Below are positions 5,634 through 29,548 of a stretch of 36,011 nucleotides of DNA, piece by piece (the first letter of the stretch is position 1; every line of letters starts with the position of its first letter). Made by a program: the position numbers and the translations under genes. The notes beneath the pieces are model-generated. The model saw only the letters and a program-made list of their open reading frames with translations. It was not told the origin of the DNA and did not search any database. The stretch spans positions 1 to 36,011 of the forward strand of contig JAGONZ010000002.1 of NCBI GenBank assembly GCA_017992755.1, written 5' to 3'. The DNA comes from Candidatus Buchananbacteria bacterium. Lineage in GTDB: Bacteria > Patescibacteriota > Patescibacteriia > 2-01-FULL-39-33.

Positions 5634-6998
5634 ATGAATCCCCAGCAATTATGGCAAGCGATCCTTGGTGAATTGGAGCTCATACTGTCCAAAGCTAATT
5701 TTACCACATGGTTTAAAAATACCGGCATTTCTTCAGTCGCTAATGATGAGGTGGTGATCTCGGTCCCAAACGGGTTTACAAAGGAATGGCTTGAGAAGAA
5801 ATACCATCAAAACATCGTTAAAGCTTATAAAAACATCACAGGTGCCAGTCCTAAGAGTATTACCTATAAAATTGAGGTTATTACCACTGCCACCCCTATT
5901 ATAACTCCCACTTCTTCCACTTCACCTATTGTCGCTAGTCCGTCAGAGCCTAAAAATCAGCTAAAATTAGATAATTTTACCTTAAACCCAAAGTATACCT
6001 TTGCCAATTTTATCGTTGGTAAAAACAATGAATTAGCTCATGCTGCCTCATTAGCAGTGGCTAAAAACCCTGGAACCAGCTATAACCCACTTTTTATGTA
6101 TGGTGGGGTTGGACTCGGCAAAACTCACCTTATGCAAGCAATTGGGCATGCAATTTTAGAGAATAATCCCTCAGTAAAGGTTTTATATGTATCCTGTGAG
6201 AAATTTACTAACGATTACATTGCCGCTATTCAAAGTGGTAAAGCTAGTGATTTTGAGAAGAAATATCGCTTAATTGACGTCTTATTGATCGACGATATTC
6301 AATTTATCTCTGGTAAAGAGCGGACCCAGGAGGCATTTTTTTATACTTTTAATGAACTCCACCAACATAATAAGCAAGTGGTAATCTCTTCTGATCGACC
6401 ACCAAAAGCTATTGCCGCCCTTGAACACCGCTTGGTTTCACGTTTTGAATGGGGAATGATTGCTGATATCTCCGCTCCTGACTTGGAAACAAAGATGGCT
6501 ATTATTGAAACCAAGGCTCGGGAGAAGAATTATGTCCTCACTCCTGATATTACTCAATATTTAGCCACTGTCATCCACAACAACGTCCGCGAACTTGAGG
6601 GCGCTCTTAACCGAATTATTGCCCATAGCCAATTACTTTCAAAAACATTAGGCTTGGAGGAGGTAAAACAGGTGGTCAGTAGTATTACTGCCGCCTCCCA
6701 AAAGAAATCTTTAACCCCAAAAACAATTATTTCAATTGTGGCAGAATACTTTGATATCGCCATTGAAGATATTATCGGCCCCTGCCGCAAAAAGAATCTC
6801 ACTGAGCCGCGTCAGATTATTATGTACCTCATTCGCGAGGAACTTAAATCATCCTACCCAACCATCGGCCAAGAAATTGGGGGACGCGACCATACCACCG
6901 TCATTCATGCGTACGAGAAAATTAATCGTAACATTAAAACTGACGATAAGTTGCGTCACGACATCACTGCCCTTAAACAGAAATTAGCGATCCAATAA
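5634..6998 (+). CDS. dnaA: Chromosomal replication initiator protein DnaA
   Basis: 454 residues with all four DnaA regions. The N-terminal domain I (QQLWQAILGELELILSKANFTTWF) is followed by a Thr/Ser/Pro-rich linker near residues 85-108. The AAA+ domain has Walker A GGVGLGKT at 157-164 and Walker B VLLIDD at 216-221. Domain IV carries the DNA-contacting signature GRDHTTVIHAYEKI from residue 417. ATP-bound DnaA binds DnaA boxes and opens the origin. No Shine-Dalgarno is visible; instead a DnaA-box-like TTATCCACG directly abuts the ATG. dnaN follows in the same direction after 306 bases. Confidence 0.98.
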   Translation: MNPQQLWQAILGELELILSKANFTTWFKNTGISSVANDEVVISVPNGFTKEWLEKKYHQNIVKAYKNITGASPKSITYKIEVITTATPIITPTSSTSPIVASPSEPKNQLKLDNFTLNPKYTFANFIVGKNNELAHAASLAVAKNPGTSYNPLFMYGGVGLGKTHLMQAIGHAILENNPSVKVLYVSCEKFTNDYIAAIQSGKASDFEKKYRLIDVLLIDDIQFISGKERTQEAFFYTFNELHQHNKQVVISSDRPPKAIAALEHRLVSRFEWGMIADISAPDLETKMAIIETKAREKNYVLTPDITQYLATVIHNNVRELEGALNRIIAHSQLLSKTLGLEEVKQVVSSITAASQKKSLTPKTIISIVAEYFDIAIEDIIGPCRKKNLTEPRQIIMYLIREELKSSYPTIGQEIGGRDHTTVIHAYEKINRNIKTDDKLRHDITALKQKLAIQ

Positions 6999-7304
6999 AG
7001 CGCGTGGGTATAAGATGAGGATAAAGTAAGTAAGAGTGTGGGATAGACCGTTGATAGGAGTTGTACAACTTGGGAGTTAGTCTTATAACTCATGTACACA
7101 AGTTGTGTTCAATACTAGTATAAGTTTCTATCTTAGTTCTACCTCAACCTTAAAAAGAGTTATTAGAGTTCCAGTACGAAGTCGTCCTCAAAGTTATACC
7201 CATTAATACAGTAAGAAATACTAATTATTTCTTAATAAAATAGAAGTTATTTCGAGTTATCCCCGTATCCCCAACCCTTAGTATTATGATGAATTATATA
7301 TAGT
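6999..7304. other. Intergenic region dnaA-dnaN with palindromes, second oriC candidate
   Basis: 306 bases without a gene. It holds a perfect 12-base palindrome agttgtacaact (7059-7070) and an inverted repeat ACACAA-G-TTGTGT (7096-7108). It becomes AT-rich toward dnaN and has a TTATCCCCG site (7257-7265) that is a two-mismatch DnaA box. A TATGAT (7285-7290) 14 bases before the dnaN ATG could be its -10 box. It may be part of the origin or a dnaN control region. Confidence 0.4.
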
Positions 7305-8432
7305 ATGAAATTCTCCTGCACCCAAGAAAATTTTCAACAAGGTTTAAGTATTGTCAGTCATCTAGCGGGACGTAATGCTAATCTTGCTATTCTTTCAAAT
7401 ATTTTAATTTGTGTTCAGGATAAATTAGTAACCTTAAGTGCAACTAATCTTGAGATTGGAGTTAGTACTCAAGTTCGAGCATCAGTAGAAACTGAGGGGT
7501 CACTAGCAGTTGATGCTCGCCTACTCGCTGAATATGTTAACCTTCTTCCTCGAGAGCGGATTGAACTTGAAGTAATTGACGGAGAGTTATTTATTTCTTG
7601 TGGTTCACACCATACAAAAATCAAAGGAGTTGATGCTACTGACTTTCCATTACTCCCAACAATTAGCCGCGAACAACCTTTTATTGTGAGTCCTTTAGAA
7701 TTACGGGATGGAATTCAAAAAGTAGCTTTTGCGGCCGCGCATTTAGAAACTCGACCTCAGATTTCCGGTGTGTGTTTAAATTTTTCTAAGAATAAGTTAA
7801 TTACCGCCGCCACTGATGGGTATCGATTAGCTGAATATCAAATTACTCGAGCGGATGAAGTGGTGGCTGACCAAAAAGTAATTGTGCCGGCGAAGACACT
7901 TCAAGAAATTAGTCGAATTATTGGCGTCTTTAAAGATATTGACGCTACTCACCAACTTGAGTTATATGTAACTGATAATCAATTATTAGCTTCATATAAT
8001 GGTACAGAATTAATTTCACGGTTAATTGAAGGTAATTACCCTGAATATGAAGCAAGTTTCCCTGAGCGGATTGAAACAAATGTGATTGTGCCAACTGACG
8101 CCTTTATAAAAGCGGTTAAAACTGTGGGTTTATTTACTCAGTTAGGAGTCCAGGATATTCGCTTAGAGTTACAAGCCCCAGATTCAGTGATGGTGAGCGC
8201 CTCATCGGTGACGAGTGGTGAAAGTCAGGTTCAACTAAGCGCCCAAACTAATAATAATCTAATTGTAATTCTTAATTACCGGTTTTTATTGGATGGCCTT
8301 CAAAATTGTTCTAGTGATGAAATTAGCCTAGAATTTACAACTCCAAACGATCCATGTCTCCTTAAACCACAAGGGAGTGATGTATATCGGTATATTATTA
8401 TGCCGATTAAACAAGATGTAGTGGTTGGCTAG
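7305..8432 (+). CDS. dnaN: DNA polymerase III beta subunit (sliding clamp)
   Basis: 375 residues with three repeated clamp folds. It starts MKFSCTQENFQQGLSIVSHL, has the family motifs LSILSNI-like (LAILSNILICV), AATDGYRLAEY at the first/second domain junction and a C-terminal VYRYIIMPIKQ, where most clamps end in YxIMPMRL; here nine extra residues follow MPI. Two copies form a ring around DNA that tethers the polymerase. No Shine-Dalgarno is visible. recF and gyrB, often next in line, are absent; instead a convergent PBP gene follows. Confidence 0.97.
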   Translation: MKFSCTQENFQQGLSIVSHLAGRNANLAILSNILICVQDKLVTLSATNLEIGVSTQVRASVETEGSLAVDARLLAEYVNLLPRERIELEVIDGELFISCGSHHTKIKGVDATDFPLLPTISREQPFIVSPLELRDGIQKVAFAAAHLETRPQISGVCLNFSKNKLITAATDGYRLAEYQITRADEVVADQKVIVPAKTLQEISRIIGVFKDIDATHQLELYVTDNQLLASYNGTELISRLIEGNYPEYEASFPERIETNVIVPTDAFIKAVKTVGLFTQLGVQDIRLELQAPDSVMVSASSVTSGESQVQLSAQTNNNLIVILNYRFLLDGLQNCSSDEISLEFTTPNDPCLLKPQGSDVYRYIIMPIKQDVVVG

Positions 8433-18410: not shown

Positions 18411-18887
18411 CTAGTTTCCGCTTGGCACTTGGACGCTTTGACCGCTAGAACCAGCGGCATTTAATAAGCGCTGATTAATAATATTAATCACTGAGGTGGC
18501 TATCGCATATGAAATTAATACCAGCACCAAGCCGATGACGGCATTTTTAATAATATCTTTAGCTTCACCAACGTTTTTGCTTTCACCACCGGCAGTCATC
18601 CACTTCCAACCGCCGTACATAATAAGGAGCACTGCAACGACGGCTAAAAATCCAAGAAAGAATTTAATTATATTGCCAATGGCTTCCATTGGCGTGATAT
18701 TAGACCCACCAAAGGTGGATCCAAGCTTGGTTGCTTCCAAGGCCTTCGTATCAAGGGCAGCTTGCGTCAATGTCGGCGTTGCTAACAAACTGACGGCACA
18801 CAACAACACGCCACCAATTACTAGTATTGGCAAGTAGCGGCGGATGGCGCCGCGATCAATAAAGGCGCTCGCCGTCTTAAGAAGCAC
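18411..18887 (-). CDS. VirB2/TrbC-like pilin family membrane protein (A)
   Basis: About 158 residues from GTG 18887. A first hydrophobic helix (YLPILVIGGVLLCAVSLLATPTLTQA) looks like a signal peptide. The mature part has two helices around the shared motif MYGGWKWMTAGGES, then AKDIIKNAVIGLVLVLISYAIA. Two-helix proteins of this kind are annotated as TrbC/VirB2 pilins, subunits of conjugative or type IV secretion pili; here the role is inference. A longer frame from ATG 18932 exists, but its extra hydrophobic residues come from overlap with the preceding gene; GTG 18887 overlaps that gene's stop by 11 bases. It is last in the array. Confidence 0.65.
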   Translation of the reverse strand: MLLKTASAFIDRGAIRRYLPILVIGGVLLCAVSLLATPTLTQAALDTKALEATKLGSTFGGSNITPMEAIGNIIKFFLGFLAVVAVLLIMYGGWKWMTAGGESKNVGEAKDIIKNAVIGLVLVLISYAIATSVINIINQRLLNAAGSSGQSVQVPSGN

Positions 18888-19230
18888 TGACCCCGTTAAA
18901 TATAAATAAGGTAATAGCATAAGATAAAACAATAATCACGAGGCCGGTGATGGCGGCGATAATAATGCTTTTGGCGTCAGTAACGGCCTTGGTCTCACCG
19001 CGCGCCGTCATCCATTTCCAGCCCCCATAAAGCATTAAAAGGAAAAATACCAAACTGAGAAGTCCCAAAAAAGCGGTGACCAACGTGCCAATAGCGACGG
19101 GAAGCGAGCCGCGGGCGGCGAGGTCGGTGCCGTTAACGCTAGCTTGTAAGTTGTTGCGAATCTCTCCGGCGGCCGACACTGGCAAAGCTAGAGTCGAGAC
19201 GAGGAGGGCGCTGATAATACCTGCTTTCAT
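18877..19230 (-). CDS. VirB2/TrbC-like pilin family membrane protein (B)
   Basis: 117 residues from ATG 19230 (MKAGIISALLVSTLALPVSAAG, a clean signal peptide with an ASAA-like site). Helix one ends in MLYGGWKWMTARGET and helix two is SIIIAAITGLVIIVLSYAIT, the shared layout of this array. An in-frame GTG at 19254 touches the hairpin at 19255-19278 and gives a worse N-terminus. Its stop overlaps the start of the next gene, implying coupled translation. Confidence 0.7.
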   Translation of the reverse strand: MKAGIISALLVSTLALPVSAAGEIRNNLQASVNGTDLAARGSLPVAIGTLVTAFLGLLSLVFFLLMLYGGWKWMTARGETKAVTDAKSIIIAAITGLVIIVLSYAITLFIFNGVSAS

Positions 19231-19254
19231 GTGAGTGTAGTATGCCTTCAGCAC

Positions 19255-19278
19255 AAAGGAGGCGAAATCGCCTCCTTT
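19255..19278 (-). other. Hairpin between pilin-like genes, holding a buried AAAGGAGG
   Basis: The arms aaaggaggcg and cgcctccttt form a perfect 10-bp stem around four bases. There is no T run after it on the minus strand, so it is not a standard terminator. On the minus strand the first arm contains a perfect AAGGAGG that would be paired. It may be an mRNA processing or stability element, or a weak attenuator. Confidence 0.5.
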
Positions 19279-19289
19279 GACTGTTAAGC

Positions 19290-19691
19290 TTATAGGTCGT
19301 TAAGTAAACGATTATTTACTTCGTTGAAGACGAAGGTTGCAATCGCGTACGCAGACAAGATAATGATCAAACCGATAATGCCGTTAACGATGAGCTTTTT
19401 CGCTTCGCTCACCTTGCCGTCATCACCGCCAGCAGTCATCCATTTGAAGCCGCCGTAAAGGATCACGAGCACAGCGACGATACCGAGGAACGAGAAGATC
19501 CACTGCATAATCTTGGTGATCAGTCCCATTAAGTCGGCGTTATCGCTGCTGCCTTGAAGCGTGTTTTCAAAGCTGGCATTGTTGACACCAAATGGGTCAT
19601 CATTTTGAGCAAACGCTACAGGCGCTGCAAAAGCTAACGCGAGCGTCAAAGTCATGATGCCAGCGAGTAACTGTTTGTGTAATTTTTTCAT
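19290..19691 (-). CDS. VirB2/TrbC-like pilin family membrane protein (C)
   Basis: 133 residues. The signal peptide MKKLHKQLLAGIMTLTLALA ends near PVAFAQ, then a short polar segment (NDDPFGVNNASFENTLQGSS), helix one, the motif LYGGFKWMTAGGDDG, and helix two AKKLIVNGIIGLIIILSAYAIA. It is the best-formed member: a purine-rich GAGGGGGTGAT site lies close before its ATG, its own promoter is visible (TTGGCA-18-TATACT), and a stem-loop follows. These signs suggest it is the most highly expressed unit of the array. Assignment to pilin rests on topology and motif. Confidence 0.72.
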   Translation of the reverse strand: MKKLHKQLLAGIMTLTLALAFAAPVAFAQNDDPFGVNNASFENTLQGSSDNADLMGLITKIMQWIFSFLGIVAVLVILYGGFKWMTAGGDDGKVSEAKKLIVNGIIGLIIILSAYAIATFVFNEVNNRLLNDL

Positions 19692-19760
19692 ACAATCACC
19701 CCCTCTCTGTTGTCGAATGATGCCATTCGTGTAGTCAATAATTCATCCATACTGGTAATT

Positions 19761-19790
19761 AGTATATCACAGCCAACCGCCAACTGCCAA
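19761..19790 (-). promoter_or_regulatory. Promoter of pilin-like gene C
   Basis: Minus-strand TTGGCA (19790-19785) and TATACT (19766-19761) are 18 bases apart. The leader of about 60 bases holds a small hairpin, CGAATG-GCAT-CATTCG, before the GAGGGGGTGAT site. Confidence 0.55.
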
Positions 19791-19832
19791 TCGCTTACCG
19801 TCAATACATAGCAATCAACGGTAGAGGGTTAG

Positions 19833-20159
19833 CTAACTAGCGCCTACCGCACCGAGGATAGTATTGACGGCGGCGAATGATAATAAGATGGCGACCAAGC
19901 CGAAGATCGCCCAGATCATGATATTTTTGCTTTTGGTGATGAGGGTGGCGTCCCCGCGTGAATAAAACCATAGCCACCCGGCCCAGATGAAACTAAGAAA
20001 GGCGACGACACTGGCACCAGCTAAAACGGCACGGACAATAATGTTGGCGAGTTCTGGAATAGTGGTAGCCGGAATTGGACTGTTAAATTCGAGGGCGTAG
20101 GCACTCATTGGTAGGACTAATGAAGCGACCGCAGTGCTTAGAGCAAATATTTTTTTCAT
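19833..20159 (-). CDS. VirB2/TrbC-like pilin family membrane protein (D)
   Basis: 108 residues: signal peptide MKKIFALSTAVASLVLPMSAYA, a short extracytoplasmic stretch with LEFNSPIPATTIPELANII, helix one, the diverged motif WAGWLWFYSRGD, then SKNIMIWAIFGLVAILLSFAAV. It keeps the spacing and the K-x-I-hydrophobic-hydrophobic pattern of the other members but lacks YGGWKWMT. It lies three bases after the cysteine-rich gene and is separated from gene C by about 140 bases that hold a promoter, so the array is probably two transcripts. Confidence 0.68.
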   Translation of the reverse strand: MKKIFALSTAVASLVLPMSAYALEFNSPIPATTIPELANIIVRAVLAGASVVAFLSFIWAGWLWFYSRGDATLITKSKNIMIWAIFGLVAILLSFAAVNTILGAVGAS

Positions 20160-20162
20160 ATA

Positions 20163-20795
20163 CTAATTTTTTTTCGGAGTCGCTTCACACTGTAGGTTGC
20201 CACTAATTAAGGTTGAGGTGTTAAAGGCGCCATTGGTAAGCGATATGATCACGGTATTAACTAGTGTCCAAGCAATCATGATTACAAACACACCGACGAT
20301 CACTGATTTAATAATCTCTTTGCCTTGACTGATGCGGCTAGTATCGCCGTAGGCAGTGATAAATAAGAAGCCCGCAAGAATCAACATTAGCACTGCGGCG
20401 ACACCAGTCAAAGCGAGAATGACCCTAGAAACATTGATTAAAAGCTGAAAAATGTCACACACACTACATTCATTGTTGGCCTGGTCTCCAGCGCAGCTGG
20501 CTGGTATAAATACGGATTGTGCGGCGTTACGATAGGCGCTGTCATTAAAGTTTGAAGTGCTATCAGCAGTTGGTGCCGGGGTACATGTAATCTTATTAGG
20601 GGAAAGACTGGTGACACCACATGTTGCCTGGCTGCACTGATCGGTGCACGTTAAGGGCGAGCTTTGTCCTTTGTCATCAGTGCAAATACATTTAATCTCA
20701 GCCGCTTGTACTGATTGTGGTTGAACCCCAATAACTCCAATAACGGCACTGCACGCAATTAATGTCAATACAGCATATTTACTGAACGAGCTCAT
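20163..20795 (-). CDS. Cysteine-rich pilin-like membrane protein (E)
   Basis: 210 residues. After a signal peptide (VLTLIACSAVIGVIGVQ...VQAAE) comes a secreted region with nine cysteines (CIC, LTC, DQC, ATC, ITC and later SC, EC, VC, spaced like disulfide knots), then two helices around LAGFLFITAYGDTSRISQGKEIIKSV, the same layout as the small pilin-like genes. The extra cysteine-rich head sets it apart and could be a surface-exposed or capping subunit; this is inference. The ATG overlaps the stop of the binding-protein gene by four bases. Confidence 0.68.
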   Translation of the reverse strand: MSSFSKYAVLTLIACSAVIGVIGVQPQSVQAAEIKCICTDDKGQSSPLTCTDQCSQATCGVTSLSPNKITCTPAPTADSTSNFNDSAYRNAAQSVFIPASCAGDQANNECSVCDIFQLLINVSRVILALTGVAAVLMLILAGFLFITAYGDTSRISQGKEIIKSVIVGVFVIMIAWTLVNTVIISLTNGAFNTSTLISGNLQCEATPKKN

Positions 20796-22156
20796 AATGT
20801 TTGGTTTATCTTCTGGATCGCGGTGCCGATAATTTGCTCATCTTCTTTATCTGTCATCGAATTGGTGAGTTGATCAAGCATGGTTTTGAGCGCTGCGTCA
20901 ACCGTGAGCGCATCTTTGCCGATATACCAATTACGAGCCGTTAAGGTTTGGGTTGAAGCCGCGTGTAGCTCCTCATCTTCGCTTTGGGCGGCAATCAAAG
21001 TCTTCAAAGCAGCTGGGCGCTTGGTGATCTCTAGAAACTTTTTAGCTTCAGCATCGCGTGTCGTCGCAAACAAGATGAAATCCCAGGCCTCATTTGGATA
21101 TTTAGTTTTCTTCGACGTCACCTCGAGCCAGTAATTAGCCAAATTGGTCGGACGCTCAGGTGAAATCTGCGGTAGCGGTGCGATTCCGATCTGTACGCGT
21201 GGGGCACGGGCGCGGATTAGCGGCAAGTTGTAATTATAGGCAAAAGCAATGGCGGTTTTTCCAGCCATGAAAGCATCCAGGGCGTTTGGTTGGTCAGTGC
21301 TCCAGCTGTAGACGTTTTTAGTCGGTGAGCTGAAGTCCCGATAGAAGCGCAAGGCTTGGCTGCCTGGGTTCTGGCCATTTTTACTGGCAAAGAATGTCGG
21401 TGAGCCTTGAGGGGTGGTCATGGTCGCCCCGTTCTGCATCATTAAGACTGAGAGTAAATCTGCGCTCGTATTAATATTGACGCCCGTACCAATGGCGGCC
21501 CCGGATTGGACGACAGCGCCTTTACTGTCATATCGAGTGAGTTTAGTGACCACATTGGAAAATTCATCCCAGGTTGCTGGTGGCTGGCTAATATTGGCCG
21601 CATTGAACAAATCGCGGTTATAGAGCATTACCAAGCTGTCGACTGAGAGCGGCAAGCCATACACTACGTCGTCAATAATACTGTCTGTAACGACCGTATC
21701 AGGAAATTTGTCCTTAATTTGGCGAAGATTTGGGGTCGGCGTGGTTTCGAGCTCAAAAACCTGCTCTTTTTTGATCGTTCCTTTAATTCGCTGGGTAGCC
21801 ATGGTGATCTTGGCTGGCATCGGGGTTAGCTTGGGTTGATATTCGCGCAACCAACTCTCAGGAATAGAGAATAGGTCGGGTCCCCGATCTTCAGCAAAGG
21901 CCTCAAGGAGTTGCTGCTCGTATTCTTCGTAGCGGAATTTCCGGTAGTTGATTTTTACGTTTGGGTGGAGAGTTTGGTAGTCAGCAATAATGCCGGCAAA
22001 TGAATCAGCGTCATCCCACACGCGCCAATACTCGAGCGTCACTGGCTGTGTGCGTTCTTGAACGGCTTTCGACGGTGCCTTGCAGCCAAAACCAGTGGTT
22101 ACTAAAACGGCAATTAAGAGGGCGAGTGCGGTTGTGTGTTTTATCGAAGGATTCAT
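20792..22156 (-). CDS. Extracellular solute-binding lipoprotein, sugar ABC type
   Basis: 454 residues. The lipoprotein signal (ALLIAVLVTTGFGC, Cys at about 25) is followed by a family 1 / SBP_bac_8-like binding protein: VTLEYWRVWDDADSFAGII at the start, DLFSIPESWLREY, and a hinge region with NYWLEVTSKKTKYPNEAWDFILFATT. Such proteins bind sugars or oligosaccharides outside the cell and hand them to ABC permeases. No permease or ATPase genes lie nearby, and the gene is instead coupled by a four-base overlap to the pilin-like array. A TATAAT eight bases before the ATG suggests a leaderless mRNA. Confidence 0.87.
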   Translation of the reverse strand: MNPSIKHTTALALLIAVLVTTGFGCKAPSKAVQERTQPVTLEYWRVWDDADSFAGIIADYQTLHPNVKINYRKFRYEEYEQQLLEAFAEDRGPDLFSIPESWLREYQPKLTPMPAKITMATQRIKGTIKKEQVFELETTPTPNLRQIKDKFPDTVVTDSIIDDVVYGLPLSVDSLVMLYNRDLFNAANISQPPATWDEFSNVVTKLTRYDSKGAVVQSGAAIGTGVNINTSADLLSVLMMQNGATMTTPQGSPTFFASKNGQNPGSQALRFYRDFSSPTKNVYSWSTDQPNALDAFMAGKTAIAFAYNYNLPLIRARAPRVQIGIAPLPQISPERPTNLANYWLEVTSKKTKYPNEAWDFILFATTRDAEAKKFLEITKRPAALKTLIAAQSEDEELHAASTQTLTARNWYIGKDALTVDAALKTMLDQLTNSMTDKEDEQIIGTAIQKINQTL

Positions 22157-22250: not shown

Positions 22251-22556
22251 ATGATAATTCCCGAAGCTCAAGTCTTTTTAGAAAAAATTGTGACTGAAAA
22301 ACACGGCACCGTGAGCGCCGAATTTCGCCGTGACACAATTGCGAGTTTGCAGTCTCGGTTGGAAGCACATGTCATGACGGCACTGGCAGCAGCGATGCCA
22401 CCGGCAGGAGTTGCAGCTATGAATGAATTGGTTGGAGATACGACAGAAATTACGCCTGAGAAAATCCAATCGATTATTACTCAGCACATTCCGAATATAT
22501 CAGAAATAGTAGCCGCAGCTTTGCTAGAGTTCCGGGCTACCTACCTCACTTCATAA
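22251..22556 (+). CDS. Small helical protein, DUF5663-like
   Basis: 101 residues with a repeated pattern of short helices: VFLEKIVTEKHGTVSAEFRRD, a middle section LQSRLEAHVMTALAAAMPPAG, then ITPEKIQSIITQHIPNISEIVA and a final LLEFRATYL. The end LLEFRxTYL and the length fit DUF5663, small proteins frequent in CPR genomes, usually near secretion or pilin-like genes; the match is from memory. No signal peptide. It starts the operon that ends with the giant protein and is divergent from the binding-protein/pilin-like group. Confidence 0.6.
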   Translation: MIIPEAQVFLEKIVTEKHGTVSAEFRRDTIASLQSRLEAHVMTALAAAMPPAGVAAMNELVGDTTEITPEKIQSIITQHIPNISEIVAAALLEFRATYLTS

Positions 22557-22566
22557 TCTACTGGCC

Positions 22567-22752
22567 ATGGCGCCGACAAAAACAAAATCAGCAACGTTAC
22601 TTGAAGCTCAACTTAAACAATTGGAGCGGGTTTATGATGATTTTGAACAGCAAATGTCGGCCTTGCGGCGCGAGCGAGCACAATTACTTGCTGATATCCA
22701 GGCGCATATTGACCAGAAGAAGTTACAGTCCGTATATAACAACCTAAAATAA
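22567..22752 (+). CDS. Small coiled-coil protein
   Basis: 61 residues, nearly all helical: LEAQLKQLERVYDDFEQQMSALRRERAQLL has clear heptad spacing, with KKLQSVYNNL at the end. It lies 10 bases after the previous gene and two bases before the giant gene, so it is translated with them. Function unknown; it could pair with the coiled coils of the giant protein. Confidence 0.6.
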   Translation: MAPTKTKSATLLEAQLKQLERVYDDFEQQMSALRRERAQLLADIQAHIDQKKLQSVYNNLK

Positions 22753-22754
22753 GT

Positions 22755-25700
22755 ATGGCGAAGCGTCCGCGAGAAGAAGAAGATTTTGATGAGATTGAGC
22801 GTAAAGGCCGGAATAAAGACGGTAAGGTGAGGCGTGGCCAAAAAGATCCTGAAGCAATTAATATTAACCTTGAACTTGAAGCGCAAGTTGGACGAGAACA
22901 GCGAGAATTAGAAGATCAACTCAGGCGCGTGGGTGAAGTTCAAGGTCAAGTGGGTGATGAAGCGGCAGCGTTTGCCGCAGAAACTCAGGAGTTGCTACCT
23001 GACGGTGTCACCGAAACTCAAGAAGCGCAATTTGAGATGATTGATGAACGTGCCCTGGCTGCCGCCGCTCAAGCCCAGGAAGCACTTGATGTCATTAAGC
23101 AGGAACAATTTCTAGAGCTGTTTAAAGAAGATATACGTAAAAGAATTGATAAGACGGGGGTGGTTCACATGCAAGCTGATACTAGTGACGAGAAGGTTTT
23201 TTTCAGAAGGGCACGCAAGGTTGCTGCAGAGAAAATCGGAATTAATCTAGAAAATGTCGACTCTTTGGTCTCAGCTGATGAATTACTTGAGGCAATTAAT
23301 GAGGTAATGCGTGAATATCAGCCAATCACACCTGAGAGCTCTTTACCTGATGCCAAACGCGAGAAATTTCTCAAACATTTTGAAAAACAACTAGATAAAG
23401 AGCTCGATGATCTCGAATTCCTTTCCGAAGAAGATATTGCCGAAGCTTATGAGTCTGCTAAAATCGCCGCCCAAAAAAAATTAAAACTTGATACGCTCGT
23501 TGTTGATGATGAGTTAAATGTGGAGATGAAGGGTATCGAGCGGCGTTATTCAGAACGAAAAGCGCAGCGTGAATTAGAAATTACTGAAAACAAAGGGTTA
23601 GCTGTTAATGTTTTGGGTGCAGGTAAAAATAGAGAAATCCTAGAACGACTAAAAGATAAAATTGGTGATGCAACCGAGCCGGAGTCGGTAGCTGATACTA
23701 AAAGGACGGCTCCAAAAAAAGAGGCAGCGATTCAAGGTCCTCAAGCGGCTAGCAAAACAGGACTACAACGTGTCCAGAAAGTCGATACTAATTCTCCTAA
23801 ACGCATTGATATTGATGAGTATGTTCGACAAGGGTTGGGATTTGCTCATGGCACGGTTAGTACGAAAGGCGGCAAGGAATCCGGAGTGACTTTTCATGGG
23901 CGAAAGCGTGCCGCTACTACTTCAGCACCTGAAACTGAATTGGAAACAGCGCCAACTAGCGAACAGCTCGCATTGGCTGCAGAAATTGATGCCAAGATCG
24001 AAATTTTGGATGATTTGGTAACTGAAATATATGAGTTGCCTAACGAGCATCATTTTTCTGACAGCGCCTTAACTGCTTTGGATAGTTTTGTTGATACATA
24101 CGACTCAAGTATCCAGAAATTAGCTGAACTATGCTATTTAATTAAATCACCTCAGGATCTCGTCAATTGGAATGATGGCCATGCATTTATTGAACGTAAG
24201 TTACGATTAGCCAAAGAATATTTGCTATCACTTGATTCAAATGCAGTTATTACCAAAGAGGATATTGAAAATCATGTTCGCCAACAGCCAGAAGTAGTCG
24301 ATGTTCCGGCGCCATCCATTGGCGACCGCTTTGAGCAGTTGTTCCGAAAGCGACTCCAGCGGGAACTGCGTTTGCTTGATAGTCAAACCTCAGCTCAAGG
24401 TATTGAAGGTGCCTACAAGCATGTACTTGATGCCGTGTTTGATCAAGTTAATAGTTCATACGATGACCGGGGGCGGCTTCAGGAGCAAAACAATATCACT
24501 CGTGACGAAGCTGTTGTTATCGCGCGCGCGGTTCGAGCCGAACTCGAAGCGGCTTGGCGAAATCACCATGACGAATTTTCTCAGGGCCTAGAGCGGTTAG
24601 AAAATCTGAAAGTGGAAGCCCAAAAGTTAGATGGTGGCATCGCTGAAGACCTGAAACCTGCTAATCTGGAATCTACGCCGGCAATTGAAATGCTGCAGCG
24701 CCGGATTGAGCGTTTGTTTGCAGAATTAGACACGGCCACTCAGTCGCCAGATGTTCTCAAGCTCAACGAAGAGTTTCAAGCGGCCCAAAAGCGGTCACCG
24801 AACACACCGGAGGAGCAACAGCAGTTAGTTGATCATCTTAAGCACATCGTGAGTCGGTTACAAGACACTGTATTTGGGCGCGCGCTTGATCGAGAGCAGC
24901 GTATCCATGCCAGTGAAGTTAAAAATCAATTTGAAGATCAGGTTCAGTATGCTGCTTTTATTGAAAAACAGTTGCGCGAGCCTGAAACGAGCTCCCCAGA
25001 GTTTAAAAAGATAATCAAGAAAAAGAACGACATTCTAAATAAATTCGCGAACGCTAAGGAGAATGATCGACTCGAAGAACTGCTCCACCAGTTCAAGCAG
25101 CGCGTAGTGGCGCCCTTAGGAGAGCTTTTCCATGAGCGCAAATCACCCGAGGCAGTTATTGTTGAAAATCAGACTGAATTACCACCGGTAGAAAGTCTAG
25201 AAAATGATCCACGCTTCCAACAAATTATTGAGGCTGAAAGCTTAAGCTATCTGAAAACTACAGATAGTGCCTGGTTTTACCGCAACTTCTCTGGCGAAGT
25301 TTCGCCAGCGGGCTATCTTATCGATCGCCAGGGCAAAGAAACTAACTTACTGCCAAGTCAAAATATAACCAGTGGCTGGGACGCAGTGAAAGCCAAATCA
25401 GAAAAAGTATTTGCCGAGCGCTATCCAACTGCTGCCCAAGCACCTGAAAAACCGCCTCAGGATCCCAACCCAAAAAAGCCCGATACTTTTGATGGCCTAA
25501 GTGAGGCCCCAACTATCCAATACGCCGGCATGGCTCAAGGGGTTGAAGTTGGTCCCGATAATGAGGATTCACTTGAGGCCTATGGTCGTCTCCAACAGGC
25601 TACCGTCAAGGTCGAAGCGCCAAAACCAGCGGCTGAGCAACCCGAAGTTGAGAAGGGTCAGGAGCACCCATCAAAACTCTTTCTTATCGACACCTCAGAA

Positions 25701-28700
25701 GTTGTTCGCGCGTATGCGCGGCGTGAAGCTGAACAAAAACTTGAGCAGCTACGGCATTCTTCGAATACGTTGCAGCGAACCTGGCTCCGCTTAGGTGAAA
25801 AGGGGTATCTCAGTAAATTTTATAAGGAGTCACTCGCCAATATTAGTACTAATAAAAACCTTTTAGCCGAGATTGAAGCTCGGTTTGGCCGGAGTGAAAA
25901 CCGCAATGAAGGCCGCGAGTATTCGGATGAGATTCTTAATAGCTTAATTGAAGAGTTTGATCAGGCAGTGGTCGAAACCGATGAAGTTGGTGATTTCGTT
26001 CAGGATGCTGAGGTGAGTGCGGCGCTCGGTGATCTCTGTCGCCGATATGCAATTGATGACCCGGCGATTCATGACCGGCACACATTTGATGCTGCGGTTG
26101 ATGAAGTTATTATCCCAATCTTATTGCGCAAAGGCTTTGCCTTTAGCAATGATGCGAATCGCGCTGGCCAAGCTGACGGCTTGATGTTTGCCAGTAATCT
26201 TTTCAAGTTCGCCGAAAGCTACAAGGCAGGAGTTAAAAACCAGTTGGAAGCGTTGCAAGAGCAATATCCTGATGATGCCGAGAAAATTAAAGCCGAACTC
26301 AGCGCCGAAATGGCCCTGGATATCCAGCTTGGTCTAAAGCAACGAGACTTGTACGAGACGAAACCAGCGGGCGCGTTATCATGGTATGAAAAACTAGTTG
26401 ACCGTCTGGAATCAGTGCCGATATTGAACAAGGTAATTGCCAATCCAATGATGTATGGGGCGGTCGCTGGCGGTCTGACCGCAGCGGCCACGATTGGCAC
26501 GCGGGGTATCGCCCGGGCCGGTGCGGTGGCTGGCGTTGCCGCAATTGCCGGTACGGCAGGAATGATCGCACCATTGGTTGTGGGTGCTGGCGTCGGCGGA
26601 GCGTTTATTGCGGCTCGCCGGGGCCGAGACTTGAAGTATGATCGTGGCATGGACTTACGGCGACGGACGCTGGGTGCGGAAAGTGGCGGGGCTCGGACTG
26701 ACACGATGCGCAAGTTTGCCTATGACCAAAAAGACGCAACCACTGTTACTGAACAGCTACGAAGCTTATTAGCCCAGGATCAACTCAATGAAGATGATCG
26801 CTTAGCGGTTGCTGATAGTATGGCTCGGCTGGCCTTGGAGAAGGAAAAGAGCCTTGATTTGTTTAGTGTTGATGCGGAACAAGGCGGGCAGTATAAAACC
26901 CGGGCACTGGCGATGAAGGATCTCAAAGTAGCACTCAAACAACTCCAAGAAAAATTTGATTTAAGTGACGAGTCATTCACGCAATTGCAAACTGAGACAG
27001 CAGCAACGTTAGTCGAGGGCATTGAAGGCAATGACCGTGACTTCAATCGCTATAAGCGTCAGCAAATGGTTAAAAGCGGCGTCTTTGGCGTCGCCATGGG
27101 TTTGGCACTGGGCACCGTTGGTCAGTACGGTGTGTACCAGGGACTCGAGGCGGCCGGCATTAAAACACCCGACAGTGCGCTCGAAAAGATTTATCAAGTG
27201 CTTCGAGGCGACCAGGCTGCCACTGCTCCTGCCGAGAATATGCAGCAGGTTTTGGAGCAACTCCAGATCAAGAAACTTGATACTGGTGACGTTCAATTAG
27301 TAAGTCCTAAAGGCGAAGTCTTGGCGGATCATTTGCGCTTTGGCGATAACGGTGAATTGACTCCAGAAAGTCAGCAAGCTTTGCTCGATAAGCACATTGA
27401 TTTCAGTGCTCATCGGACTTCAGAGGTAGTTTCACAAGCACCTAATACATATTTCGGCGAAGAGCTTCAAAAGCATGGGCGTGGTGCCTGGCATGATGAA
27501 GTTGGTAAAAAGATGAGTTCTTTTTTCAATAAGCTTATCGAATATGAAGGTAAGCAGCAGATGTTGTATTTGGATAAAAACGCGGACGGCAGCGTAATCG
27601 TCAACGCCCAGGCAATTCTGCAAAACCTCGAGAAAAATCTTAACGGGTCGTTTAAGCAATTTGGTACCAGTCCTGATGGGAGTGTCGATTCCAAACTCGC
27701 TTCCCTTCTTGATCAGTTACGCCAGTATCAAAAAGAGGGTACCTTGGCTGAACATCTCAAAGTTCAAATCATCCCGACTGATGAAGCTAATAAACAGGGC
27801 TTAGGCATTTTGACGGCCGGCGCTAACGCTGAAGGCAAAATTAGCTTGCCAGAAAAAGTGGCTCGGTTGTTTACAGATAAAACCAGCCTGACCTATGGGC
27901 ATCACCCGGTTAAGTTTATTGAATTGCGGCTTGATGATCATGTGCTAGCTACTAGCGTTGGAGCCGACATGTCGGCGATGCCAGGCATGGTGGATCATTA
28001 TCAATATGATTTCTCAACCGCAGCTGTTGCTCCGGTTTCCGAAGTAAGCCCAGCTACGTGGGATCTCCCACCGGTGCTACCATTTGACTCGCGCAAGGCG
28101 CTTGAGAAGTCAGCAGTCAACGACAGGATCGTGGGCGGTAGTTACTACCAAGGGCATTATGAACTGTCTCCTGTAGAGTTGGAAAAATATCAGGATCAAC
28201 GCTTACCACTATTGGAGACGCCAGACACCATACTAAATCCGCAAAAGGCGGCGGAGATGTATTTGTCAAAACAGGATGAGCACTATCATCATGATTTAGA
28301 AGTATTGGTCAAAGATTTAGAGCCACGGCACCCTGACTGTAAGGTGGCCGTATGTATCCCAGTTGCTGGCCATCAAGAATCACACAACATCTACAAAACG
28401 CTCGAGTCGTATAGCCATCAATCAGCTGACCCAAAATCATTTGAAATTGTGCTTTTTGTTAATCACCCAGAAAAAGATTTGCAAGGCAATAAGCTTGATG
28501 CTAAAAAGACTATTAAAGAAATTGAGCGATTTAAAAAAGACCATCCGGAGCTGAAGGTTCAGTATATTTACAAAGCGCTCAAGCGTGAGGATGCAGTCAT
28601 TGGTAATATTCGCAAGATTCTCAGTGACACCGTCCTGCTTCGTGAACAGTCAGCGCCAAACGAGCGAGACTTAATCCTTGTCAGTAATGACGCTGATAAT

Positions 28701-29501
28701 GAAGGGTTGTCGCCGAAATATATCGAGAATTTCATCAATAAGTTTGAAGCACATCCCGAGGTTGATTCATTTATGGGACGGCTTGATTGGGACCCGAAAG
28801 CCTACGTTCGCAATCCAGTTTTGCATGTTGGTACTCGACTCTTCCAGTACATTGCCATGCAATCGCGACACAAAGGATGGCACATTGAGTCATCCGGAGC
28901 AAACTTTGCCTATCGGGCTAGTATTTATGCGGCCGTAGGCGGTTATGATCAGAAATCACCATTAGCAGAAGATGTCGATTTAGGCAGAAAGATTAAGGCC
29001 GCCCGAATGGGTGCAACACGAATGAAAGATGTTGGTGTTGCTGGTAGTCAGAGTTCTCGGTTATATACATCGGCACGCCGTGCTGAAAAGGCTTTCACCG
29101 AAGGTAAGGCACCTATTGAGCAGTGGGAAACAGGCTTCAGTGCGTATGATGATGAAATTAGAAAAGGTAAATGGCAAATTAATGGCGAGGTTAACTGGGA
29201 TGATCCAGAAGAGCTAAAAAAATTCAAATCTGATATTGAAAAAGTAGTAAATCAAACCATTAACCTTTATCTGGGTATTGGTGGGCGCTATGGAGAATTG
29301 GCAGGCAAAGCGCTTAAGTGGCTGGGGATTAAGTATGAGTTAGGTGACAAAGGTCAGGTTAAAGTGACGGATATTACTCTGCTAATAGATGGACTGAAGA
29401 AATATCAACGTGAGGGATTGAAGTTATATGAGCAGAAAATTGGCAAGGAACCAAAGATGACTAGCCCAATCAGTAACAATCTCTTGAGACGGCTTAAATG
29501 A
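22755..29501 (+). CDS. Giant coiled-coil membrane protein with C-terminal family 2 glycosyltransferase domain
   Basis: 2248 residues. Residues 1 to about 1230 are rich in Glu, Lys, Arg and Gln with long helical/coiled-coil stretches and a few proline-rich linkers. Two glycine/alanine-rich hydrophobic helices follow (about 1232-1252 and 1256-1287), then a charged region, a third hydrophobic helix (about 1441-1465) and a mixed region. From about 1860 to 2100 a GT-A domain is visible: KVAVCIPVAGHQESHNIYKT, the DAD metal motif in SNDADNEG (near 1980), FAYRASIYAAVGGYDQ and the catalytic EDVDLGRKI (near 2071). Catalytic residues look intact. There is no signal peptide, so the N-terminal part is probably cytoplasmic. 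Start ATG 22755 follows the small coiled-coil gene by two bases. Confidence 0.85.
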   Translation: MAKRPREEEDFDEIERKGRNKDGKVRRGQKDPEAININLELEAQVGREQRELEDQLRRVGEVQGQVGDEAAAFAAETQELLPDGVTETQEAQFEMIDERALAAAAQAQEALDVIKQEQFLELFKEDIRKRIDKTGVVHMQADTSDEKVFFRRARKVAAEKIGINLENVDSLVSADELLEAINEVMREYQPITPESSLPDAKREKFLKHFEKQLDKELDDLEFLSEEDIAEAYESAKIAAQKKLKLDTLVVDDELNVEMKGIERRYSERKAQRELEITENKGLAVNVLGAGKNREILERLKDKIGDATEPESVADTKRTAPKKEAAIQGPQAASKTGLQRVQKVDTNSPKRIDIDEYVRQGLGFAHGTVSTKGGKESGVTFHGRKRAATTSAPETELETAPTSEQLALAAEIDAKIEILDDLVTEIYELPNEHHFSDSALTALDSFVDTYDSSIQKLAELCYLIKSPQDLVNWNDGHAFIERKLRLAKEYLLSLDSNAVITKEDIENHVRQQPEVVDVPAPSIGDRFEQLFRKRLQRELRLLDSQTSAQGIEGAYKHVLDAVFDQVNSSYDDRGRLQEQNNITRDEAVVIARAVRAELEAAWRNHHDEFSQGLERLENLKVEAQKLDGGIAEDLKPANLESTPAIEMLQRRIERLFAELDTATQSPDVLKLNEEFQAAQKRSPNTPEEQQQLVDHLKHIVSRLQDTVFGRALDREQRIHASEVKNQFEDQVQYAAFIEKQLREPETSSPEFKKIIKKKNDILNKFANAKENDRLEELLHQFKQRVVAPLGELFHERKSPEAVIVENQTELPPVESLENDPRFQQIIEAESLSYLKTTDSAWFYRNFSGEVSPAGYLIDRQGKETNLLPSQNITSGWDAVKAKSEKVFAERYPTAAQAPEKPPQDPNPKKPDTFDGLSEAPTIQYAGMAQGVEVGPDNEDSLEAYGRLQQATVKVEAPKPAAEQPEVEKGQEHPSKLFLIDTSEVVRAYARREAEQKLEQLRHSSNTLQRTWLRLGEKGYLSKFYKESLANISTNKNLLAEIEARFGRSENRNEGREYSDEILNSLIEEFDQAVVETDEVGDFVQDAEVSAALGDLCRRYAIDDPAIHDRHTFDAAVDEVIIPILLRKGFAFSNDANRAGQADGLMFASNLFKFAESYKAGVKNQLEALQEQYPDDAEKIKAELSAEMALDIQLGLKQRDLYETKPAGALSWYEKLVDRLESVPILNKVIANPMMYGAVAGGLTAAATIGTRGIARAGAVAGVAAIAGTAGMIAPLVVGAGVGGAFIAARRGRDLKYDRGMDLRRRTLGAESGGARTDTMRKFAYDQKDATTVTEQLRSLLAQDQLNEDDRLAVADSMARLALEKEKSLDLFSVDAEQGGQYKTRALAMKDLKVALKQLQEKFDLSDESFTQLQTETAATLVEGIEGNDRDFNRYKRQQMVKSGVFGVAMGLALGTVGQYGVYQGLEAAGIKTPDSALEKIYQVLRGDQAATAPAENMQQVLEQLQIKKLDTGDVQLVSPKGEVLADHLRFGDNGELTPESQQALLDKHIDFSAHRTSEVVSQAPNTYFGEELQKHGRGAWHDEVGKKMSSFFNKLIEYEGKQQMLYLDKNADGSVIVNAQAILQNLEKNLNGSFKQFGTSPDGSVDSKLASLLDQLRQYQKEGTLAEHLKVQIIPTDEANKQGLGILTAGANAEGKISLPEKVARLFTDKTSLTYGHHPVKFIELRLDDHVLATSVGADMSAMPGMVDHYQYDFSTAAVAPVSEVSPATWDLPPVLPFDSRKALEKSAVNDRIVGGSYYQGHYELSPVELEKYQDQRLPLLETPDTILNPQKAAEMYLSKQDEHYHHDLEVLVKDLEPRHPDCKVAVCIPVAGHQESHNIYKTLESYSHQSADPKSFEIVLFVNHPEKDLQGNKLDAKKTIKEIERFKKDHPELKVQYIYKALKREDAVIGNIRKILSDTVLLREQSAPNERDLILVSNDADNEGLSPKYIENFINKFEAHPEVDSFMGRLDWDPKAYVRNPVLHVGTRLFQYIAMQSRHKGWHIESSGANFAYRASIYAAVGGYDQKSPLAEDVDLGRKIKAARMGATRMKDVGVAGSQSSRLYTSARRAEKAFTEGKAPIEQWETGFSAYDDEIRKGKWQINGEVNWDDPEELKKFKSDIEKVVNQTINLYLGIGGRYGELAGKALKWLGIKYELGDKGQVKVTDITLLIDGLKKYQREGLKLYEQKIGKEPKMTSPISNNLLRRLK

Positions 29502-29506
29502 AAATT

Positions 29507-29544
29507 AAACTAAAACTCCCGCTGATCAGCGGGAGTTTTAGTTT
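29507..29544. terminator. Perfect bidirectional terminator
   Basis: A 38-base perfect palindrome: left arm aaactaaaactcccgctga and its exact reverse complement, with A-rich and T-rich outer arms. It serves both the giant gene (plus) and msrB (minus). Confidence 0.92.
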
Positions 29545-29548
29545 GTTA

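What the first reader, a model, noticed from the sequence alone, without database searches (positions are those of the whole stretch)
22755..29501. Giant 2248-residue protein: coiled coils, three membrane helices and an apparently active GT-A glycosyltransferase
The protein joins roughly 1200 residues of coiled coil, a glycine-rich pair of membrane helices, a third helix and a C-terminal GT2 domain with DAD and ED motifs intact. I know of no named family with this layout. It would need to tether a glycosyltransferase to a long cytoplasmic scaffold, perhaps organising surface sugar synthesis at a cell pole or a secretion site. The two small genes before it are coupled to it.
Basis: partly seen in the sequence, partly recalled or inferred. 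Interest (0 to 1): 0.75.

Follow-up and report, generated by a model that had tools for sequence, protein, structure and literature searches.

The report
Modular giant protein with sugar-transferase head
A very large protein found only in a group of tiny, mostly uncultured bacteria keeps the same weakly membrane-seeking middle part and the same small partner gene across species but swaps the enzyme at its end (here a sugar-transferase, elsewhere another sugar-transferase, a kinase or a phosphatase), which points to an undescribed family of interchangeable-enzyme giants whose job is not yet known.

Summary
The ORF is real (window 22755-29501, 2248 aa) and is the third gene of a module: DUF5663 (22251-22556), a 61-aa coiled coil (22567-22752), giant. 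The module is widespread in this phylum: DUF5663 occurs in 85/381 class genomes and 0/14 controls, and 44/53 inspected DUF5663 loci have an ORF of 800 aa or more directly downstream (10/358 for other ORFs). The giants form several sequence families. The window's family shares a ~815-residue core (aa 973-1786) with weak Gly-rich hydrophobic segments, found in 28/380 phylum genomes. The parts outside the core are exchanged. The C-terminus is a divergent GT2-like GT-A domain in 13 fused homologues, a GT9 domain in three, PP2C in one, and a Ser/Thr kinase after the GT in one; others carry nothing recognised. The window's core is closest to non-GT-A giants (44-45%), but its GT matches giants whose cores are only 24-28% identical. 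DAD is invariant; ED is nearly so. An assembly join is excluded. '1200 residues of coiled coil' is overstated, and 'three membrane helices' is doubtful because the segments are marginal. Best reading: a membrane-associated scaffold with exchangeable catalytic heads, probably in the cell's own envelope; an effector delivered to a partner cell is a close rival.

The parts
22251..22556 (+). DUF5663 (PF18908) small helical protein, 101 aa, first gene of the module
   Evidence: Pfam 24.0 bits vs cut-off 23.7; a ~100-140-aa gene directly precedes nearly every giant
22567..22752 (+). 61-aa predicted coiled-coil protein, second gene; stop lies 2 nt before the start of the giant
   Evidence: ORF and alignment with small ORFs in the same slot of 23 other loci; no Pfam match
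22755..29501 (+). Giant modular protein, 2248 aa, third gene
22755..25670 (+). Giant aa 1-972: lineage-specific, charged N-terminal part with Pro-rich linkers; no match to any other giant
   Evidence: periodicity above chance only in aa ~400-820; phmmer of aa 1-960 finds only itself
25671..28112 (+). Giant aa 973-1786: conserved core shared by this giant family, ending in a P..PP..P..R..LE motif that marks the module boundary
26439..26627 (+). Gly/Ala-rich hydrophobic hairpin, aa ~1229-1291, marginal as membrane helices
27066..27140 (+). Third Gly-rich hydrophobic segment, aa ~1438-1462
28113..29498 (+). Giant aa 1787-2248: GT2-like GT-A glycosyltransferase module
   Evidence: low-confidence AF2 model has the beta-alpha-beta order of a GT-A N-terminal half
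28689..28697 (+). DAD motif (aa 1979-1981), present in all 13 fused proteins
28968..28973 (+). ED motif (aa 2072-2073), kept in 11 of 13 fused proteins
29506..29545 (.). Strong bidirectional terminator-like hairpin (18 pairs) directly after the giant
   Evidence: overall terminator count in the region is not above shuffles; this one stands out by stem length and position

Best explanation
This is one copy of an undescribed three-gene module (DUF5663, mini coiled coil, giant). SHOWN by sequence: the giant has a conserved core with weak Gly-rich hydrophobic segments, a freely replaced N-terminal extension, and an exchangeable C-terminal enzyme module, here a GT2-like GT-A domain with conserved DAD and ED. 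INFERRED: the two small helical proteins bind the giant and help it fold or assemble; the Gly-rich segments attach it to the cytoplasmic membrane, perhaps as oligomers; the terminal enzyme then works on the inner face of that membrane, so the GT transfers a sugar from a nucleotide donor to a surface-glycan intermediate or a protein of the cell's own envelope, while kinase and PP2C heads, or the neighbouring kinase gene, regulate the same assembly. The architecture and module exchange are about 0.9 certain; the cellular role is the uncertain part, and the confidence given refers to the whole statement.
For: Gene module: DUF5663 in 85/381 class genomes and 69/287 phylum genomes, 0/14 controls; 44/53 DUF5663 loci followed by an ORF of 800 aa or more, against 10/358 other ORFs. 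Core in 28/380 phylum genomes. C-terminal modules on the same core: GT-A in 13, GT9 in L015, L142 and L144, kinase after the GT in L037, PP2C in L040. Exchange: core identity 44-45% to L034/L015 but 24-28% to the giants whose GT is 44-46% identical; a GT tree keeping the core-II GTs together is rejected, p-AU 0.0015; a 100/100 core clade holds a GT-A head, a GT9 head and one with no recognised head. Own-envelope role: GT-A and GT9 both act on glycans; a separate Ser/Thr kinase gene follows the GT giants of L018 and L035; LytR-CpsA-Psr genes lie directly after two giants; nucleotide-sugar pyrophosphorylase-like genes lie near the giants of the window, L145 and L155 (read from sequence only). 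No copies in phage or plasmid collections.
Against: The last hydrophobic segment has basic N-flanks and neutral C-flanks across 60 giants (+1.95 vs +0.10, p=3.5e-5), predicting the C-terminus outside, where nucleotide-sugar or ATP enzymes have no donor. Neighbouring envelope genes were not tested for enrichment. Rapid swapping of both ends is more typical of proteins at an interface with other cells. The fold is unproven (AF2 pLDDT 51; best PDB hit PcManGT E=0.013). The canonical GT2 Asp motif after strand 2 (D-D/N-x-S) reads FVNH here, so donor binding is non-canonical.
Confidence: 0.42

Rival explanations
1. Host- or partner-directed effector: the giant is exported (for example by the phylum's T4SS), the Gly-rich segments insert into or cross the partner's membrane, and the swappable enzyme acts in the partner's cytoplasm; the small upstream proteins are export chaperones.
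For: Swapped heads of signalling type: kinase, PP2C, and in another giant family WipA-like phosphatase with ankyrin repeats. Both ends replaced quickly; giants of a different sequence family in the window's own taxonomic family, G006 and G008. Marginal hydrophobicity as described for T3SS/T4SS membrane effectors, which sit just below the threshold for inner-membrane targeting (PMC6110835). Basic N-flank/neutral C-flank predicts the C-terminus outside. The window module adjoins T4SS pilin genes and G006 has giant, solute-binding protein and pilins in one run; the genome has a VirB4-like ATPase.
Against: No general linkage to T4SS genes: pilin-like ORFs in 3 of 91 giant loci, VirB4-like ORFs in one more, with 2-18 pilins per genome, so no excess is evident. 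No recognisable export signal: C-terminal net charge does not differ from control ORFs (p=0.38), only relative to the acidic body (p=5e-4). No immunity gene seen. GT9 and LytR-type neighbours point to own-cell glycans.
Confidence: 0.33
2. The core is a structural or scaffolding protein, and the C-terminal enzymes are incidental fusions of neighbouring genes without a shared role.
For: Many core giants have no recognised enzyme; a GT-A relative exists as a separate gene near the giant of L142 and standalone in G084; kinase genes are fused in L037 but separate in L018 and L035.
Against: Heads sit just after the same P..PP..P..R..LE boundary; 13 GT-A fusions with conserved motifs argue for selection on the fused form.
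Confidence: 0.15
3. Assembly join of two genes, or a chance ORF.
For: Fragmented assembly: 72 contigs, 86.7% complete.
Against: The same core-GT fusion recurs in 12 other genomes; protein-level homology over the whole core and GT.
Confidence: 0.01

Closest known systems
GT2 glycosyltransferases, GT-A fold (Pfam PF00535 / PF13641 / PF13632)
   Same: beta-alpha order, DAD as DXD, ED as catalytic-acid motif; fused homologue L141 passes Pfam cut-offs
   Different: Window copy below cut-off; N in place of the usual Asp after strand 2; extra conserved IG..RK and RR motifs and a long C-terminal helical region; fused to a giant
DUF5663 (PF18908)
   Same: First gene of the module scores as DUF5663
   Different: Unknown function; no paper in the held library mentions it; its link to giant genes is added here
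GT9 heptosyltransferases (PF01075)
   Same: Occupies the C-terminal position in giants L015, L142 and L144 of the same core family
   Different: Another glycosyltransferase family, absent from the window's copy
T3SS/T4SS transmembrane effectors and translocators (PMC6110835, PMC12981334)
   Same: Few, weakly hydrophobic membrane segments; small neighbouring gene that could be a chaperone; exchangeable enzyme domains
   Different: No export signal, partner-cell localisation or general linkage to a secretion system found
Polymorphic toxin systems (own knowledge)
   Same: Conserved body with exchangeable C-terminal enzymes
   Different: No immunity gene, no Sec signal or known toxin delivery domain, and the heads are not typical toxins

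Membership tests
GT2 / GT-A glycosyltransferases | Sequence match to a GT2 profile above cut-off | tested here: inconclusive
   Window below cut-off; fused homologue L141 and standalone P0005 above
GT2 / GT-A glycosyltransferases | DXD and catalytic-acid motifs conserved | tested here: met
   DAD in 13/13, ED in 11/13 fused proteins
GT2 / GT-A glycosyltransferases | GT-A fold | tested here: inconclusive
   AF2 pLDDT 51; best Foldseek hit is mannosyltransferase PcManGT at E=0.013
GT2 / GT-A glycosyltransferases | Sugar transfer activity | not testable with these tools
   needs an enzyme assay
DUF5663 module | Small DUF5663 gene directly upstream of a giant | tested here: met
T3SS/T4SS transmembrane effectors | Weakly hydrophobic membrane segments | tested here: met
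   (approximate scale)
T3SS/T4SS transmembrane effectors | Secretion signal | tested here: inconclusive
   Absolute C-terminal charge equals controls; elevated only relative to the protein body
T3SS/T4SS transmembrane effectors | Genetic linkage to the secretion system | tested here: not met
   3 of 91 loci with pilins, one more with VirB4-like ORFs
Polymorphic toxins | Immunity gene next to the toxin tip | tested here: not met
   In the window the giant ends at a terminator followed by a convergent SelR gene; downstream genes of the other loci show no common small gene
Polymorphic toxins | Exchangeable C-terminal enzyme on a conserved body | tested here: met

The most novel reading that the evidence does not exclude
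A phylum-wide, Patescibacteria-specific delivery or interaction system: a conserved DUF5663 / mini coiled coil / giant module in which the giant's weak Gly-rich membrane segments carry an interchangeable enzyme (GT-A, GT9, kinase, phosphatase) into the membrane or cytoplasm of the partner cell, giving these host-dependent bacteria a lineage-specific set of modifying enzymes.
Probability: 0.28. Interest if true: 0.88.

Novelty: new variant of a known kind. Interest (0 to 1): 0.6.

Why it matters
How these small, host-dependent bacteria act on their hosts, or build their own surface with so few genes, is open. A recurring module whose largest gene swaps its enzyme head gives a concrete, searchable set of candidates: about a quarter of sampled genomes carry DUF5663, and most inspected DUF5663 loci carry a giant. 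It also gives DUF5663, so far without a function, a genetic partner.

Tried and rejected
PDB sequence search with core and GT profiles: nothing significant. Iterated profile of the core over all giants: weak additions (L077, L100, L106, L108, L109 and others) treated as possible drift and not counted. T4SS linkage as a general rule: rejected. C-terminal basic tail as a T4SS signal: inconclusive. PHROGs: nothing for the window protein. L034's lack of a GT head is uncertain because unknown residues (runs of N) interrupt its C-terminus. The insertion-energy scale was written from memory and is approximate. Non-overlapping longest ORFs were used as a stand-in for gene calls.
Full report
Observation. 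The ORF at 22755-29501 is intact and codes for 2248 residues. It lies on one 36-kb contig of a 776-kb, 72-contig draft genome. Two short genes precede it on the same strand: DUF5663 at 22251-22556 and a 61-residue predicted coiled coil at 22567-22752; the latter's stop lies 2 nt before the giant's start. An 18-pair bidirectional terminator-like hairpin follows at 29506-29545. No second copy was found in the genome.

The module. DUF5663 occurs in 85 of 381 class genomes and 69 of 287 phylum genomes, and in none of 14 control genomes. I fetched 53 DUF5663 loci: in 47 a same-strand ORF of at least 450 aa starts within 450 nt, and in 44 it has 800 aa or more, median of the 47 being 1453, against 10 of 358 other complete ORFs in these loci. 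Some are cut by contig ends, so lengths are lower bounds. In about half the loci a 55-90-residue helical ORF fills the gap and aligns with the window's. The giants fall into several sequence families, so the module is a slot and not one protein. In the window's own taxonomic family, G006 and G008 carry giants of a different sequence family.

The window's giant family. The shared part is aa 973-1786. It was found in 11 of 381 class genomes with a four-sequence profile and 28 of 380 phylum genomes with a twelve-sequence profile, always in long frames and nearly always with a ~100-140-residue gene directly upstream. The core ends in a P..PP..P..R..LE motif. What follows differs: GT-A in 13, GT9 in L015, L142 and L144, a Ser/Thr kinase after the GT in L037, PP2C in L040, and no recognised domain in many others. 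A separate Ser/Thr kinase gene follows the giant in L018 and L035. What precedes the core also differs: 5 to ~970 residues, the window's being the longest in the family and without a match.

Exchange of the head. In the core tree the window groups at 100/100 with L034 (no recognised head, but its C-terminus is interrupted by unknown residues) and L015 (GT9). Its core is 44-45% identical to these and 24-28% to the GT-A-bearing L018, L035, L036, L037 and L140; its GT is 44-46% identical to those five. The GT tree places the window inside the GTs of the other core lineage, and a tree that keeps that lineage's GTs together is rejected (p-AU 0.0015). Long branches call for caution, but both lines agree that the GT module moved between giants.

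The GT module. It is GT2-like by homology: a fused homologue passes two Pfam GT2 cut-offs and a standalone relative passes PF00535, while the window's own copy does not. DAD is invariant and ED is kept in 11 of 13. The Asp motif that normally follows strand 2 is FVNH here. The AF2 model is poor (pLDDT 51) but shows the expected strand-helix order, and its best PDB hit is a mannosyltransferase at a weak E=0.013. An active enzyme is likely, not shown.

Membrane segments. Across 86 giants the hydrophobic segments are unusually rich in Gly+Ala (0.40 vs 0.20 in neighbouring ORFs, p~1e-55) and the last one has basic N-flanks and neutral C-flanks. Predicted insertion is marginal (approximate). If all three span in the window protein, the GT lies outside, where its donor is absent. 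Either they do not all span, or the enzyme works in another cell. This is the central open question.

Mechanism. I favour a membrane-associated scaffold in the cell's own envelope with exchangeable enzyme heads (0.42), because GT-A and GT9 both act on glycans, kinase genes accompany the GT giants, and LytR-CpsA-Psr genes follow two giants. The effector model is close behind (0.33): weak membrane segments resemble those of secreted membrane effectors (PMC6110835), heads are swapped quickly, and the window module adjoins a cluster of five T4SS pilin-like genes, four of them over the PF18895 cut-off; but pilins or VirB4-like genes lie near only 4 of 91 giant loci, no export signal was found and no immunity gene is seen.

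Novelty. No Pfam, NCBIfam or PDB family covers the core, and no paper in the held library mentions DUF5663. The parts are of known kinds; the arrangement is not named in the resources searched.

Noticed in passing
window 18411-20795 (-): Five adjacent T4SS pilin-like genes (PF18895; four over cut-off, one also a weak TrbC/VirB2 match), next to a solute-binding protein gene (20792-22156) divergent from the giant module; G006 keeps the same set (L094).
   Followed up: partly
L099:1542-8423 (+): DUF5663-associated giant of another family with a WipA-like phosphatase domain (3.9e-16) and ankyrin repeats.
   Followed up: no
L149:8313-12002 (+): Gene after a core giant joins a YheC/D ATP-grasp domain and a GNAT domain in 1229 aa.
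   Followed up: no
L041:10729-13236 (+): 835-aa HAD-hydrolase protein directly following, by a one-base overlap, a core giant without a GT head; its close relative L039 has the GT head.
   Followed up: partly
L015:7190-12706 (-): Sister giant with a GT9 head whose N-terminal region holds an HEWRH (HExxH-type) motif, possibly a metallopeptidase.
   Followed up: no
L144:1809-8823 (+): Core giant split into two overlapping ORFs (1134 and 1214 aa) with the core divided between them: frameshift, assembly error or programmed split.
   Followed up: no
L042:5256-10262 and L125:9247-15720: Two giants of 1668 and 2158 aa next to each other in one genome (G098:C1), each with its own DUF5663-like gene.
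   Followed up: no
Plasmids NZ_CP086382.1, NZ_CP074396.1, NZ_MK318987.1: Distant relatives of the window's GT domain (24-27% identity) on Deinococcus, Agrobacterium and Rhizobium plasmids, two annotated only as hypothetical.
   Followed up: no
L143:1-810 and 6359-7990: In G552 the DUF5663-giant pair is flanked on both sides by VirB4-like ORFs, the only giant locus found inside an apparent T4SS region.
   Followed up: partly
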